Shown: positions 12,150 through 20,824 of the stretch, in pieces | Layout of the letters: each line of letters starts with the position of its first letter | Position numbering within the stretch: the first letter of the stretch is position 1 | Virus record (IMG/VR): IMGVR_UViG_3300030116_003619 | Coordinates: 1-20,824 of that record | Direction: 5' to 3' (one strand) | Source of the DNA: a virus | Length of the DNA: 20,824 nt | Program-made: the position numbers and the translations under genes | The notes under the pieces: model-generated | The model's database searches: none | What the model saw: the letters and a program-made list of their open reading frames with translations, nothing else | What the model was told of the DNA's origin: nothing

Positions 12150-12508
12150 TATGGTTCAAATACTTGTCTAAATGTAACCTGTACTCTTGCTCTGTTTAAA
12201 TAAGGTACAGTTTTGTTATAGCCACCCTCCACCACAAAGTTCATGGCACTTTCACCTGGAACTGTATAAGTAAAGTTTGCTCCACTAACAGCAATAGTGT
12301 CAAAGAAGTTAGTTAGTGTATCAGCATCAGTCTCACTTACTTCAAAAGTAAGATTAAATATTTTTGCATTTTGATTAAGACCAAAGGAAAGTCGATGTTC
12401 GTAACCATCACCAAAAGAAACAACACGAGTCTTTGGTGCGTTTGACTTTTGAAAGTTATATCTTGGTACGAAAGCTGTACCTGCTGCTGTGTTAGGTAAG
12501 TTAGCCAT
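12149..12508 (-). CDS. M: Minor tail protein M-like
   Basis: This 119-residue protein has the Phage_min_tail pattern seen in lambda gpM: residues 20-46 include APKTRVVSFGDGYEHRLSFG followed by LNQ, and then a beta segment FNLTFEVSETDADTLTNFFD and an end of VQVTFRQVFEP. Length is close to lambda gpM (109 aa). It starts overlapping the tape measure stop by one base (TAATG) and stops overlapping the L start by one base, so it is probably translated by coupling. In lambda, M joins the tail tip after the tape measure complex; the position between H and L here matches. Confidence 0.9.
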   Translation of the reverse strand: MANLPNTAAGTAFVPRYNFQKSNAPKTRVVSFGDGYEHRLSFGLNQNAKIFNLTFEVSETDADTLTNFFDTIAVSGANFTYTVPGESAMNFVVEGGYNKTVPYLNRARVQVTFRQVFEP

Positions 12509-15033
12509 TAACTATATAATAACCCTCCTGGTCTTTGTTGCTGTATTAATTCCGCCTGTATAGCCTGTGATATAGCCTGTCCTAACTGCTCTGCCTGTGT
12601 TTCATCACCTTCAACAGACGATCCAGAGGCATCTACATTAACAGTAATATTGGTTGAACCACTTATACCACCTAAATCATGATTTGGAATAATATTGCCT
12701 GACTGGTTAGGCACAAATAATTCTGGTCCACGTTCTCCAACGATATAAGGTTTTCTCATGCCAGCAGGACCACCATTAGCTGCGTATTGTGGAGGAGTAA
12801 AACCAGGTGCAGGACCTTGTATATCATTTCCAAAATTAAATGGACTGAATATATTAGCTAACATTCCCAAAATTCCACGCTGAAATGAGTTAGCCATCAT
12901 TTGTGCAGCCATATCTAAGAAATGATCTGCTATACGCATGAACATATTTCTAAACGCATCAGCAACAGTCATTGTTCCTTTAATAATTCCTTTAAAAGAT
13001 TCTTCAAATGCACCACCAAATGCTTTAGCAAACTCAACTGACTGAAACCTCATATCATTTAATTTTTCCATTTCTTTATTTAAGTCAATCAATGCAGCTT
13101 TAATAGGATCAGACATAATCATGGCTTGTCTTAATAACTCTTCGCTAACTTGTTTTTCAACTTCTAACTTATCTATTGCAAATTCATGTGCTCTTTTTTG
13201 TTCATCCGTCATTATTGTTGTGTCTACTAATCCTTTAACTTTTAATTTTTCTTCTATTTTTAAAACATCTATTCTTCTTTTTAAAACATCTAAATCTTCA
13301 CTTCTCATTGTGAGACTTTCTTTTTGTATTATTAACTGATCTTTCATAGTAGATAATTGAAAGTCTCTTCTTTCTTTAATTATTCTTTGTAAATTTTCAT
13401 TTGAAAAATCTCTTGTTCCTGCTTGACCACCTAATCCTGCTGCGTTCATGTCTCTTTCAAACAATTCAAATGATCTCTGTTTAACATCAGGCATATTTCT
13501 AATTGTGGGTTCAAATAATTGTTTAAGAAAAAACAATGGTCCTCTTGAACCATCTGGCCTTAAAACCCCAAGTTCAATTCTTTTTTCTTTTATAGCCTGT
13601 CCTCTTGCTCGGTCTCTAATTTCATCAACAGTTTGAAAACCTAATGCTGCATTTATTTTTTCTAAGAAAAATGTTAAAGGTCCAGCTACAAATAAACTTA
13701 TTCCTGTTCCTAATTTTGTTAATTCATTGGTAAATCTTATAGATTCTTCTCCTAATTGAGATAACTGTGTTTTATTAGTTCCAAATGTTTTATTAAAATT
13801 ATCTAATACCTGACCTGCTGCCACAGCTTCTAATCCTAAATCTTTTAATGTTGCGACTGTATCTGCAAAAGGTGTATTAGCTTGACCCATTTTAGTAACA
13901 AGCATATCCATATTTTTTATTGGATTTCTTAATGCCTCTCCTAGTTCTCTGGCTGATTGGGCTAATTTATCAAATTGAGCACCCACAACTGTACCCAATA
14001 AAGACAAAGCAAAACCAAATTGTCCGCCTTTCTTACCACCAGCAAAACCACCAGTAGCACCTCCAATAGATGCTCCTAATCCTTGACCAAATAAAAGAGG
14101 AAAAGCACCACCAATAACTGCATTAGAAATAGCAGCTTGATTTTTTTGTTTTATCCTTCTTTGATCTAACATACGATTTAATTTAATTTCAAACTGAAGT
14201 TCTTGATTAGCCATCACCATTCTTTCTCTTCTACCAGCATTTATTTGAATTTCATTTGCTACTTGTTGTTTTGTTTGCTCTACTTCTGTTGCAGCTTGAG
14301 TGATTTCTGCTTGTCTTAAGGCTTTAACTTTTTTAATTTCGTTGTCTAATTGTGTTCGATTTTTTGTTCTTAATAAAAACTTTTCTTCTAACTCTTGAGT
14401 TGATTGTTGTTCTAACTTTAATAAACCATCTTGTAATGCTTTTTCTTCAACAAGTATCTTTTTTATTCGTTCTTCAATATTTACACTTTCTCCTTTTAAT
14501 TTATTATCTCTTTGTTGCATTTGACCTAATTTTTCCTGTAATGCTTGTTCTTCTTTAAGAATTTGCAAAGATCTGCCTTCAATATTTACAGATTGCCCAA
14601 ATAAACTTTCTCCTGGCACAAGCGAAGATCGCTTGCCTTTCATATTTCTATCTTTAAAACTTTGAGGACTACGATCTCTTCCAAGACCTGTACCAGGTAA
14701 AGGTAATGGTGCAGTGCTTAATCTTTGTAAAAGTGCTTCACGTTGTTGAAGTTCTGCATTTAATTCTTTTTCAGCTATAATTAACTGCCTTGCAGCTTTT
14801 TCTTGTAATTGAGTCCCAGAAGCAACAGCATTAAAATTTGCTTTTGCATTTAAAAGAACTTGATTTAAATTATTAAAACTTCTTACTAAGCCATTTCCTC
14901 CTTGTTGAAATTCCTTTAAAAATGTATTTAATTGTTTTACTTCAAAAGCAGTTCCTTTAAGTCTTTCGTTAAATCTAGTTAATTTTTCATTGCCTTTTAT
15001 TTGAGCAACAATATCAATATTATAATTAGCCAC
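12508..15033 (-). CDS. H: Tail tape measure protein (lambda gpH-like)
   Basis: This 841-residue protein has long helical and coiled-coil parts (about 20-300) rich in E, Q, K and L, then a Gly-rich hydrophobic segment (FPLLFGQGLGASIGGATGGF, about 310-345), more helices to about 680, and a hydrophobic stretch with FRNMFMRIADHFLDMAAQMM. The C-terminus has the typical GMRKPYIVGERGPELFVPNQ motif followed by SGNIIPN. At roughly 1.5 angstrom per residue it would set a tail near 125 nm, so this is a long tail. The start is GTG at 15033 with no good Shine-Dalgarno; no nearer ATG exists. It follows the T frame of the tail chaperone by 31 nt. A pair of internal repeats is listed separately. Confidence 0.93.
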   Translation of the reverse strand: MANYNIDIVAQIKGNEKLTRFNERLKGTAFEVKQLNTFLKEFQQGGNGLVRSFNNLNQVLLNAKANFNAVASGTQLQEKAARQLIIAEKELNAELQQREALLQRLSTAPLPLPGTGLGRDRSPQSFKDRNMKGKRSSLVPGESLFGQSVNIEGRSLQILKEEQALQEKLGQMQQRDNKLKGESVNIEERIKKILVEEKALQDGLLKLEQQSTQELEEKFLLRTKNRTQLDNEIKKVKALRQAEITQAATEVEQTKQQVANEIQINAGRRERMVMANQELQFEIKLNRMLDQRRIKQKNQAAISNAVIGGAFPLLFGQGLGASIGGATGGFAGGKKGGQFGFALSLLGTVVGAQFDKLAQSARELGEALRNPIKNMDMLVTKMGQANTPFADTVATLKDLGLEAVAAGQVLDNFNKTFGTNKTQLSQLGEESIRFTNELTKLGTGISLFVAGPLTFFLEKINAALGFQTVDEIRDRARGQAIKEKRIELGVLRPDGSRGPLFFLKQLFEPTIRNMPDVKQRSFELFERDMNAAGLGGQAGTRDFSNENLQRIIKERRDFQLSTMKDQLIIQKESLTMRSEDLDVLKRRIDVLKIEEKLKVKGLVDTTIMTDEQKRAHEFAIDKLEVEKQVSEELLRQAMIMSDPIKAALIDLNKEMEKLNDMRFQSVEFAKAFGGAFEESFKGIIKGTMTVADAFRNMFMRIADHFLDMAAQMMANSFQRGILGMLANIFSPFNFGNDIQGPAPGFTPPQYAANGGPAGMRKPYIVGERGPELFVPNQSGNIIPNHDLGGISGSTNITVNVDASGSSVEGDETQAEQLGQAISQAIQAELIQQQRPGGLLYS
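14422..14592 (-). repeat. Tandem 35-residue repeat inside the tape measure
   Basis: Residues 148-169 (SVNIEGRSLQILKEEQALQE and two more) and 183-204 (SVNIEERIKKILVEEKALQD and two more) match at SVNIE-R---IL-EE-ALQ--L, with a 35-residue period. It is a coiled-coil duplication of the kind by which tape measures change length. Confidence 0.75.
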
Positions 15034-15064: not shown

Positions 15065-15602
15065 TTACCTTCTTTTGCCTCGTAAAGCACTAACTTTTTG
15101 TGCTTGTTCCTGCTGTTTTTTATATTCGTCATTTTCTAATTCATTATATGCAGCCCAACCTATCATCTCTTCAATAGTCAAAGTTTCACATAATTCAGCT
15201 ACAGTTTTATGTAAAGTCTTTGCTAAAGAAAATAAAAACTGCCAATCTTTGTTAGCTTTTTAAATCGGCTTTAGCCTCTTTTACCTCCTTATCAGCACCA
15301 GCATTTATCATTGCTAATTGTATTTGTTCAAGAACAGAAACTTCAACCTCTCTTCTAAGAGATGCTTTATCTCCATCTTGAAAAATTCTATTTCCATCTT
15401 TATCTAATGCTTTTTCAATCATCATTTGTAACGCATAATCATTTACATCGTCCGATGATTTTTTTTGTATTGCTTCTCGTTCTGCAATAGTTAATGGATG
15501 CCAATAAACAGTAAGAACAATCTCATCATCCTGTTTGATGTCATGCTTGTAAAGTTGAGAAACTCCAAACTTGTTTTTTAAAAGATCAACTGCTCTAGTC
15601 AT
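15065..15602 (-). CDS. Tail assembly chaperone GT-like frameshift product
   Basis: The G-like frame (15602-15252) ends at TAA, but a second frame open from 15259 to the TAA at 15067-15065 encodes KDWQFLFSLAKTLHKTVAEL, then CETLTIEEMIGWAAYNELEN and a basic, Gln-rich end (KKQQEQAQKVSALRGKRR). The E-x-x-x-W-x-A-Y-x-x-x-E pattern is typical of the T part of tail chaperones. No usable start codon lies at its head, and TAA at 15262-15260 closes it upstream, so it can be made only by frameshifting. The needed shift is +1 (or -2): a Lys tRNA on AAA within AAAAA (15261-15257) can slip to AAA and then read GCT AAC AAA GAT TGG. The joint product would be about 178 residues. In lambda, GT binds the tape measure and recruits tail tube subunits. 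Confidence 0.78.
15252..15290 (-). promoter_or_regulatory. Predicted programmed frameshift site with upstream SD-like stretch
   Basis: In the 0 frame the site reads GAT TTA AAA AGC TAA (15266-15252). The A run at 15261-15257 allows the P-site tRNA-Lys to re-pair after a +1 step. AAGGAGGT (15290-15283) and AGAGG further down lie about 20 and 11 nt before TTA and may pair with 16S rRNA during elongation. T TTA AAA is also a canonical -1 heptamer, but the -1 frame meets TAG after 11 further codons, so it does not reach the T frame. Confidence 0.6.
15252..15602 (-). CDS. G: Tail assembly chaperone, G-like (0-frame product)
   Basis: This 116-residue protein lies directly before the tape measure, as lambda gpG does. 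Typical features are YWHPLTIAEREAIQKKSSDD (about 33-52), IEKALDKDGNRIFQDGDKAS (about 62-81) and a C-terminal helix LEQIQLAMINAG. In the family this small protein coats the tape measure before tube assembly; it is not in the virion. It starts at ATG 15602, just after an inverted repeat, with TAGG 12 nt upstream as a weak ribosome site. Most translation should stop at TAA 15252; a fraction probably shifts into the T frame. The family is Phage_TAC-like; the exact Pfam member was not checked. Confidence 0.88.
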   Translation of the reverse strand: MTRAVDLLKNKFGVSQLYKHDIKQDDEIVLTVYWHPLTIAEREAIQKKSSDDVNDYALQMMIEKALDKDGNRIFQDGDKASLRREVEVSVLEQIQLAMINAGADKEVKEAKADLKS

Positions 15603-15606
15603 AAAA

Positions 15607-15632
15607 TTAGTATACCTACTTTAGTATACTAA
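15607..15632. repeat. Perfect 9-bp inverted repeat between tail terminator and chaperone genes
   Basis: Arms TTAGTATAC (15607-15615) and GTATACTAA (15624-15632) are exact reverse complements with an 8-base spacer. The right arm lies in the 12-bp palindrome TTAGTATACTAA and includes the TAG stop of the tail terminator gene. As RNA it would form a hairpin whose loop holds part of the weak ribosome site for the G gene. No T run follows, so it is not an intrinsic terminator. Confidence 0.7.
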
Positions 15633-16057
15633 GCGTTTGCGGTAAATTGGCAAGATATTAAGCCAAGAAAGTGTGAAGAATCATCTAAAACAATAGGTGC
15701 AGGACCAACAACATCAAGCACTCTAGGATCACAACTAAAAGTATCTGTATAATCAGAAGCATTAACAGAAGTAAGACCATCAATAACAGCCTCTCCTAAT
15801 GCAGATAAGGTTGCACTACCTTTTCCTCTGGGAACATAAATATTACATTGAATAACACCAGAATAAAAATCCTGTGATGCACCCTGCGTTTGTGTTGTAG
15901 CCTGTGCAAAATCTATTGACATGATTATATATTTTTTAGTTTTACCAGGTGTCTTATACACCATATTGTCATAAATCATTTCTACAGTTGGATCTACATT
16001 TGCAACTGCATCTGTTACTGCTTTTTCAAAAGCTGCTCTGGTGTTAACTAAAGTCAT
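15629..16057 (-). CDS. Tail terminator protein, DUF4128-like (lambda gpU position)
   Basis: This 142-residue protein starts LVNTRAAFEKAVTDAVANVD and has IYDNMVYKTPGKTKKYIIMS, then GASQDFYSGVIQCNIYVPRG with the K-G-x-A/G turn, and an end of HFLGLISCQFTANA. The order (N-terminal helix, N-x-x-Y/F with P, the GxxQ beta edge, and a helix LSALGEAVIDGL) matches the DUF4128 family of tail terminators, which cap the tail tube and join it to the neck. It overlaps the gpZ-like gene by 4 nt (ATGA). The stop codon lies inside the inverted repeat at 15607-15632. In lambda the next gene would be the tube protein V; none is present here. Confidence 0.8.
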   Translation of the reverse strand: MTLVNTRAAFEKAVTDAVANVDPTVEMIYDNMVYKTPGKTKKYIIMSIDFAQATTQTQGASQDFYSGVIQCNIYVPRGKGSATLSALGEAVIDGLTSVNASDYTDTFSCDPRVLDVVGPAPIVLDDSSHFLGLISCQFTANA

Positions 16058-19706: not shown

Positions 19707-20824
19707 CTATTCAGTTTTGGCTTCATTAGCTGAAGGTAACACCTCTCCCTGTACCAAAATATCTCTAAATTCTTCTCTGTCTATTACTTGCTGATCGAAT
19801 AGAGATGTTAATGCTGTAATATCTTGTCCAATTAATCTTTCAATATCAAAATCTCTACTAATTTTTACTTCTGGTGGTTCAATTCCTACATATTCTGCTG
19901 AAAAATTAAAACATTTTTGAAGTTTTTGTTCTAATTCCATAGAAACCATAGCAAGCATTGAATTTGTATCAACTCTATCTAATCTTCTGGCATCAGCAGA
20001 TTCAGCTACAAACTTTTGTTGACTTAAAGTACTAATTCCAAGAGTAGCCATTTGCATTTGTAATTCTTTTATCTCAGCAGATTGAGCATCAAAAGCACTA
20101 CTAGCTGGTTCTACATAATAGATCTTGTTACCTGGTTGTGTAGCCATTGCATAATTGACAGATATAGCTAAATCTTTGGTTTGATCGTCATATCCTTCCA
20201 TTACTAGCATTGGTTGGGATGCAACGTGCAAACTATGTATTAAATCAGCCTGTCTTTGAAAATGTGCAAGATTTAAATATGCAATATCCAATAAAGGTGG
20301 TTTACTTACTAAATTTTCTGTTTTTCCAGAATAGATTGTTACTAAAGGTATTTCACCAAGAGAAAAATTACCTGATTCCACTAATTTGTATTCTTGATCT
20401 GTAGTGCCAGTACTGAACTCGCCCATATAAGAACTATCATCAACGTCATACATTGCATCAATTTGATCTTTTTTACGAAATACTCTATAACTTCCAGGTT
20501 CTATAACTCTTACCTGATCGTAAACTTTTTCTCCAAAATCTCCATCAGGTAATACAGCTTTTTCTGCGATTCTAGCCTGTATAAGGTTCCCGTAATTAGA
20601 TTCTCTATCTAATCTCCAACCTAAAAGATTTGTTGGATCCACTTCAATCCAATAAGGTCTACGATTCTGTGACCTTTCCTCAGCCAAACTGAGAGCACCA
20701 GAAGGTGCTGGATAATCAACAAGAATATGACTTTGACCATAAGTAAGAGAACACATCAGTATTCTTCTTGCATATTCGTCTAAATCCGATCCACAACCAT
20801 CTACATCCATTTTAAAAGTCTCAG
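19707..20824 (-). CDS. Portal protein, DUF4055-like (N-terminus beyond window)
   Basis: The frame is open past the ATG at 20810 to the window edge (E-T-F-K before M), and the conserved portal core begins right there, so the ATG is probably internal and the real start is upstream. Visible motifs are VDGCGSDLDEYARRILMCSL, TYGQSHILVDYPAPSG, RRPYWIEVDPTNLLGWRLDR, and QADLIHSLHVASQPMLV, followed by a long helical part EIKELQMQMATLGISTL. The order (G-x-x-x-x-L-V-D-Y-P, then R-P-Y-W-x-x-x-x-x-x-N-x-x-x-W-R) matches the DUF4055 portal-type family. It forms the 12-subunit ring at the vertex through which DNA enters. The C-terminus (QGEVLPSANEAKTE) is complete, with stop TAG at 19707. Confidence 0.88.
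   Translation of the reverse strand, partial: ETFKMDVDGCGSDLDEYARRILMCSLTYGQSHILVDYPAPSGALSLAEERSQNRRPYWIEVDPTNLLGWRLDRESNYGNLIQARIAEKAVLPDGDFGEKVYDQVRVIEPGSYRVFRKKDQIDAMYDVDDSSYMGEFSTGTTDQEYKLVESGNFSLGEIPLVTIYSGKTENLVSKPPLLDIAYLNLAHFQRQADLIHSLHVASQPMLVMEGYDDQTKDLAISVNYAMATQPGNKIYYVEPASSAFDAQSAEIKELQMQMATLGISTLSQQKFVAESADARRLDRVDTNSMLAMVSMELEQKLQKCFNFSAEYVGIEPPEVKISRDFDIERLIGQDITALTSLFDQQVIDREEFRDILVQGEVLPSANEAKTE

What the first reader, a model, noticed from the sequence alone, without database searches (positions are those of the whole stretch)
15065..15602. Hidden T frame: tail chaperone GT made by a net +1 (or -2) frameshift
The frame 15259-15065 is start-less, closed upstream by TAA, yet reads as a clean 63-residue T-type domain (TIEEMIGWAAYNELEN). 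It can be joined to the G-like frame only by a +1 or -2 shift; a Lys tRNA slip within AAAAA at 15261-15257 gives the fusion directly. Most known G/GT pairs use -1, so a +1 site would be a less common variant. The site also contains a canonical -1 heptamer (T TTA AAA), which would give only an 11-codon decoy extension, and it has AAGGAGGT about 20 nt upstream.
Basis: partly seen in the sequence, partly recalled or inferred. Interest (0 to 1): 0.78.

Follow-up and report, generated by a model that had tools for sequence, protein, structure and literature searches.

The report
Tail chaperone made by +1 frameshift
In this marine cyanophage-like virus, a small tail-assembly protein is very probably lengthened by ribosomes slipping one base forward at a fixed spot; hundreds of related phages keep this forward slip while close relatives slip backward, so the direction has flipped several times in evolution.

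Summary
The G ORF (15602-15252, minus strand) is followed by a start-less T frame (15256-15065) that only a +1 or -2 shift can join to it. T is real: it is open in 120/120 distinct relatives, is under purifying selection (dN/dS about 0.23), and matches phage tail-protein profiles. G folds like the HK97 tail assembly chaperone (2OB9, Z 8.5). A wider survey found 452 loci with T in +1 and 114 with T in -1, none fused. All 452 +1 loci share a NTN-AAA-AGN site, and 446 of them have AAA AGC. The TTG variants (only four A's) destroy the -1 heptamer and make transcriptional slippage implausible. The 0-frame stop lies 0 to 7 codons past AGN, so a prfB-like stop-driven shift is not general. The last 11 G codons show about threefold less synonymous diversity, which points to an RNA-level signal that includes AAGGAGGT. 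The tree needs at least three sign changes, and one origin of +1 is rejected (p-AU 0.0023). Best reading: low-level programmed +1 slippage of tRNA-Lys on AAA_A makes a 178-aa GT. That is a new variant of a known kind. No frameshifting was measured.

The parts
15252..15602 (-). G: tail assembly chaperone ORF, 116 aa
   Evidence: phrog_344 tail assembly chaperone 1.8e-5 and phrog_20784 3.5e-23; AF2 model best matches HK97 chaperone 2OB9, Z 8.5; dN/dS 0.14
15065..15256 (-). T frame (63 aa + stop), start-less, +1 relative to G
   Evidence: phrog_337 tail protein 2.5e-6; open in 120/120 distinct relatives; dN/dS 0.23; homologous to -1-encoded T of cultured cyanophages and pelagiphages
15255..15263 (-). 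Shift site TTA AAA AGC (E-site NTN, slip codon AAA, 0-frame A-site AGC; +1 gives AAA GCT)
   Evidence: NTN AAA AGN in 452/452 +1 loci, AAA AGC in 446
15260..15262 (-). TAA closing the +1 frame immediately 5' of the shift site; bounds where the shift can occur
   Evidence: sequence; TRA in all +1 relatives but the CTC variant L504
15252..15254 (-). 0-frame stop of G (TAA), directly after AGC
   Evidence: position relative to the site varies by up to 7 codons among +1 relatives
15283..15290 (-). Shine-Dalgarno-like AAGGAGGT, 22-nt spacer to the slip codon; putative stimulator
   Evidence: G-rich SD-like element at the same spacing in 201/201 distinct window-type sequences
15267..15278 (-). Conserved 5' element GAGGCTAAAGCC (second weak SD-like GAGG with a 14-nt spacer)
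   Evidence: synonymous diversity over the last 11 degenerate G codons 0.11 vs 0.32 upstream, permutation p 1.3e-4
12508..15033 (-). H-like tape measure gene, directly downstream of T
   Evidence: phrog_10574 tape measure 5.4e-11
15629..16057 (-). Tail terminator (U-like), directly upstream of G
   Evidence: phrog_179 tail terminator 1.4e-11

Best explanation
This is a tail assembly chaperone G/GT pair of a lambda-like siphophage tail module in which the long form is made by programmed +1 ribosomal frameshifting. Most ribosomes read GAT TTA AAA AGC and stop, giving G (116 aa). A small share pauses with peptidyl-tRNA-Lys on AAA and the uncommon codon AGC in the A site. The tRNA slips one base forward onto AAA (using the A of AGC), the common codon GCT is decoded, and translation continues through T to give a GT of about 178 aa (...ADLK|ANKDWQ...). 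By analogy with lambda, G coats the tape measure protein and T recruits the tail tube protein. Shown: frames, conservation, selection, homology, site invariance, predicted fold. Inferred: slippage itself, its step size and efficiency, the roles of AAGGAGGT and of the conserved 5' element, and the chaperone function.
For: T is open and conserved in every relative, dN/dS 0.23, with protein conservation beginning at the first T codons, ahead of any start codon. The +1 relation holds in 339 window-type loci and 113 other loci; all 452 carry NTN AAA AGN, 446 of them AAA AGC. The site is bracketed by TRA in +1 and the 0-frame stop, so AAA_A is the only good re-pairing in the window clade. AGC is uncommon while GCT is common: 6.8 vs 33.4 per 1000 codons in the phage, 5.2 vs 22.6 in the Prochlorococcus cell carrying a relative. 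Synonymous diversity drops at the site. The G fold matches the HK97 chaperone. Relatives encode homologous T by -1 at A6N sites, so the family already uses frameshifting to make GT.
Against: No protein or reporter data. AAA AGC is not avoided in host genes (28 seen, 23.8 expected), so the hexamer alone cannot be strongly shift-prone and context must matter. The 22-nt SD spacing is longer than the spacings I recall for known stimulators. No convincing downstream RNA structure (z about 0 to -1.5).
Confidence: 0.86

Rival explanations
1. The T frame is reached by a -2 shift rather than +1; the frames are equivalent.
For: Phage Mu tail genes use -2 (stated in PMC4378225).
Against: A -2 slip of tRNA-Lys from AAA would have to pair with TAA or TGA (TRA), and tandem slips of TTR/AAA do not re-pair; the site is kept whether TTA, TTG or ATG precedes AAA.
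Confidence: 0.05
2. T is made as a separate small protein by independent initiation or by re-initiation after the G stop, and AAGGAGGT is its ribosome binding site.
For: A near-perfect Shine-Dalgarno-like sequence sits upstream.
Against: No ATG/GTG/TTG lies between the +1-frame stop and T codon 26; the TTG at codon 26 is not conserved (59 of 120); conservation starts at T codons 1-7, ahead of any start.
Confidence: 0.04
3. Transcriptional slippage on the A-run makes a mixed mRNA population.
For: The run is AAAAA here.
Against: TTG and ATG variants leave only four A's and keep the same frame relation; known slippage runs are longer (my knowledge).
Confidence: 0.02
4. Sequencing or assembly error, or a dying gene: the true gene is a simple in-frame fusion.
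For: The difference from a fusion is one base in an A-run.
Against: The same relation appears in 452 loci, in a Prochlorococcus single-cell assembly (L157) and in GenBank MH327491; dN/dS 0.23; no locus in the survey is fused in frame.
Confidence: 0.01
5. The -1 heptamer T TTA AAA is the working signal, giving G with an 11-codon tail.
For: The heptamer is canonical and present in this window.
Against: Replaced by TTTGAAA in over 40% of close relatives; the -1 frame of the T stretch has stops in all 120 relatives.
Confidence: 0.02

Closest known systems
Phage lambda G/GT tail assembly chaperones (-1)
   Same: Gene position before the tape measure gene, a short G plus a frameshifted GT, out-of-frame T at the 3' end of G (lambda background: PMC5009743).
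   Different: +1 instead of -1; a single slip codon AAA followed by AGC, no X_XXY_YYZ requirement; no Pfam G family is matched by the window protein.
HK97 tail assembly chaperone (PDB 2OB9) and YqbN (3KLU)
   Same: Predicted G fold: Z 8.5 and 5.5 over 96 and 94 residues.
   Different: About 10% sequence identity.
Cyanophages KBS-S-2A, S-H1, MED4-184/117, S-2L and pelagiphages HTVC202P, HTVC026P, HTVC111P
   Same: Homologous G and T between tail proteins and tape measure.
   Different: T lies in -1 (A AAA AAC in most); T is not annotated as a G extension in these GenBank records.
HSTV-2 (archaeal myovirus) and +1-annotated SEA-PHAGES frameshifts
   Same: HSTV-2 tail chaperone frameshift described as very likely +1 (PMC5009743); the SEA-PHAGES frameshift data include +1 (PMC10885494).
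   Different: Sites not compared here; unrelated phage groups.
Listeria phage PSA/A118/A500 +1 sites and prfB
   Same: +1 P-site slippage in a phage structural gene or a bacterial gene.
   Different: Those use CCC_UGA, CCC_UCC or CUU followed by a stop (PMC5009743, PMC10885494); here AAA_AGC, with no stop required next to it.
Phage Mu tail genes (-2)
   Same: Non-standard sign in a tail chaperone pair.
   Different: -2 by backward slip (PMC4378225); not compatible with this site.

Membership tests
Siphophage G/GT tail assembly chaperone pair | G-type chaperone gene lying upstream of the tape measure gene in a tail module | tested here: met
   Terminator-G-T-tape measure-M order; phrog hits for terminator, G, T, tape measure and M
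Siphophage G/GT tail assembly chaperone pair | G has the tail assembly chaperone fold | tested here: met
   AF2 pLDDT 74.7; 2OB9 rank 1 in Foldseek (E 0.013, prob 0.99) and VIA Z 8.5; YqbN third
Siphophage G/GT tail assembly chaperone pair | T is a start-less out-of-frame extension joined at the 3' end of G, conserved as protein | tested here: met
Siphophage G/GT tail assembly chaperone pair | Two products in a skewed ratio; G binds the tape measure, T binds the tube protein | not testable with these tools
   needs expression data; a tube protein gene of phrog_10528 exists elsewhere in the same genome
Lambda-type -1 GT frameshift | T frame is -1 relative to G with an X_XXY_YYZ heptamer | tested here: not met
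   T is +1 in the window and in all 452 loci of the +1 groups; heptamer not conserved
prfB-like stop-driven +1 frameshift | In-frame stop codon directly after the slip codon, with a Shine-Dalgarno sequence very close upstream | tested here: not met
   AGC, not a stop, follows AAA; stop 0-7 codons after AGN across +1 relatives; SD spacer 22 nt
Mu-type -2 frameshift | tRNA re-pairs two bases back | tested here: not met
   the -2 codon for tRNA-Lys would be TAA or TGA

The most novel reading that the evidence does not exclude
NTN-AAA-AGC with its conserved 5' element is a distinct class of bacterial +1 recoding signal, driven by tRNA-Lys slippage against a slow serine codon and needing no stop codon. 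It arose more than once in one chaperone family by conversion from or to an A_AAA_AAC -1 site, with the sign of the shift switching while the GT product stays colinear.
Probability: 0.5. Interest if true: 0.68.

Novelty: new variant of a known kind. Interest (0 to 1): 0.52.

Why it matters
It shows that what is conserved in tail chaperones is the need for two products, not the direction of the slip: the same G and T domains are joined by +1 in hundreds of marine and freshwater phages and by -1 in their close relatives. It gives a natural set of matched +1 and -1 sites for testing how a ribosome chooses direction at runs of A. Practically, T goes unannotated in the cultured cyanophage and pelagiphage records read here, and frameshift finders tuned to X_XXY_YYZ would miss the +1 form.

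Tried and rejected
RNA structure: an 8-bp stem GCCGAUUU/AGAUUGGC around the slip site looked attractive in the window, but the slip site lies in its loop (a ribosome there would have opened it), the 3' arm breaks in part of the relatives, and shuffles fold nearly as well. Avoidance of AAA AGC in host genes: none seen. Phage-encoded tRNAs that might read AGC or AAA: none. Pfam gives no family for the window G; two of 30 relatives touch Phage_TAC_13 weakly. No solved-structure sequence match. Cultured +1 member: none in the phage collection.

Full report
What was checked. The window is part of a 28,340-base virus record. On the minus strand it carries a lambda-like tail module: tail terminator 16057-15629, G 15602-15252, tape measure 15033-12508, minor tail protein M 12508-12149, then L, K, I and J-like genes (the names L, K, I, J rest on order and size). 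Every coordinate in the finding is right: G ends GAT TTA AAA AGC TAA; the +1 frame has TAA at 15262-15260 and is then open to TAA at 15067-15065.

T is a real coding frame. A first set of 151 loci with both G and T gave 120 distinct sequences. All 151 place T in +1, none of the 120 has a stop in T, and both other frames of that stretch have stops in all 120. Over 52 sequences under 93% identical, dN/dS is 0.23 for T and 0.14 for G. Conservation begins at the first T codons (A, N, x, D, W), ahead of any start codon. T matches phrog_337 and phrog_14766 (tail proteins; in the latter the match lies at 126-163 of 224, as in a fused GT).

G is a tail assembly chaperone. Profiles: phrog_20784 3.5e-23 and phrog_344 (tail assembly chaperone) 1.8e-5. 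The AlphaFold2 model from 30 relatives (pLDDT 74.7) finds the HK97 tail assembly chaperone 2OB9 first in the PDB (Foldseek E 0.013, probability 0.99; VIA-align Z 8.5 over 96 residues) and YqbN third. The T model is three helices (pLDDT 86); its best viral match, D6PII1 (179 aa), is about as long as the predicted 178-aa GT, and another match is a named tail assembly chaperone.

Where the shift happens. In the window clade the only stretch in which a ribosome can leave frame 0 and enter T is between the +1-frame TRA and the 0-frame stop, that is TTR AAA AGC TAA. Only AAA can re-pair fully after a forward step of one. A backward step of two would put tRNA-Lys on TAA or TGA. In the full survey (T frame called with a profile of T) 452 loci have T in +1 and 114 in -1; no locus is fused in frame. 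All 452 +1 loci have NTN AAA AGN (TTA 184, TTG 155, ATG 111, CTC/CTG 2); 446 have AAA AGC, 4 AAA AGT and 2 AAA AGG. TTG and ATG before AAA leave only four A's and destroy the -1 heptamer, so transcriptional slippage and -1 are not the conserved feature. The 0-frame stop follows AGN after 0 to 7 codons, so the stop is not the pausing element in general. AGC is uncommon and GCT common in the phage (6.8 and 33.4 per thousand) and in the Prochlorococcus single cell that carries a 92%-identical G (5.2 and 22.6). That fits P-site slippage with a slow 0-frame A-site codon; the mechanism is inferred.

Extra signal. The last 11 degenerate codons of G have mean synonymous diversity 0.11 against 0.32 for the codons upstream (permutation p 1.3e-4, 76 sequences; the permutation ignores shared ancestry). 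AAG, GAG, GCT, AAA, GCC are nearly fixed although their third bases are free. The G-rich Shine-Dalgarno-like element lies at the same spacing (22 nt before AAA) in 201/201 window-type sequences. A second, weaker GAGG lies 14 nt before AAA. I could not find a supported RNA structure. AAA AGC pairs are not avoided in host genes, so this context probably matters. What the 5' element does is unexplained.

Sign switching. Cultured cyanophages KBS-S-2A, S-H1, MED4-117/184 and S-2L and pelagiphages HTVC202P, HTVC026P, HTVC111P have homologous G and T, with T in -1; 110 of 114 -1 loci carry A6N near the G stop. Contigs 67-73% identical to KBS-S-2A in G have T in +1 at GAC ATG AAA AGC. A tree of 62 GT proteins needs at least three changes of sign, forced by well-supported branches. 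A tree with all +1 rows together is rejected (p-AU 0.0023); keeping the KBS-like +1 groups together is only weakly rejected (p-AU 0.044). Recombination could contribute; the tree does not exclude it.

Literature. -1 is the usual sign for GT and lambda's mechanism is known; HSTV-2 is described as very likely +1 (PMC5009743); Mu is -2 and called exceptional (PMC4378225); a training set of phage frameshifts contains both -1 and +1, and no general motif is recognised for +1 (PMC10885494). Searches for cyanophage tail frameshifts found no description of this site. The library holds only open papers, so absence there is weak evidence. Hence: a member of a known kind of gene pair, with a variant shift; not a new kind of system.

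Verdict. What lifts the finding is scale (452 loci), an invariant and unusual +1 site, and repeated reversal of the sign. What holds it back is that frameshifting was not measured and that +1 chaperone frameshifts are not unheard of.

Noticed in passing
G000:C1:21678-22094 (minus), outside the window; locus L168:1679-2095: The major tail tube protein gene (phrog_10528, 5.9e-22) lies between the terminase and portal genes, not between the terminator and G where MED4-184 keeps the same family. The window itself has no tube gene next to G.
   Followed up: partly
L158, L159, L160-L164, L166 (gap between G and tape measure): In GenBank records of cyanophages KBS-S-2A, S-H1, MED4-184/117, S-2L and pelagiphages HTVC202P/026P the T frame is not annotated as a G extension (S-H1 has a 47-aa ORF there); in HTVC111P an antisense ORF is annotated over it.
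   Followed up: yes
15064-15034: Between T and the tape measure gene, many relatives keep AGGTAATATAGAGAAAATGTTTT, an SD-like sequence and an ATG that opens a very short ORF, before the GTG start of the tape measure. Purpose unknown.
   Followed up: no
T codons 44-63 (15127-15068): Synonymous variation in the 3' third of T is also low (pS about 0.20), as if it overlapped a second signal, perhaps for tape-measure translation.
   Followed up: no
20822-20824 and L168 near the same place: The window ends at a run of masked bases inside the portal gene (XXXX in the translation).
   Followed up: no
L157 (QCMG01000013.1): A 41,291-base contig in the assembly of Prochlorococcus sp. AG-418-M08 is a relative of this phage, so Prochlorococcus is a likely host; 1 of 300 genomes of that family has it.
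   Followed up: partly
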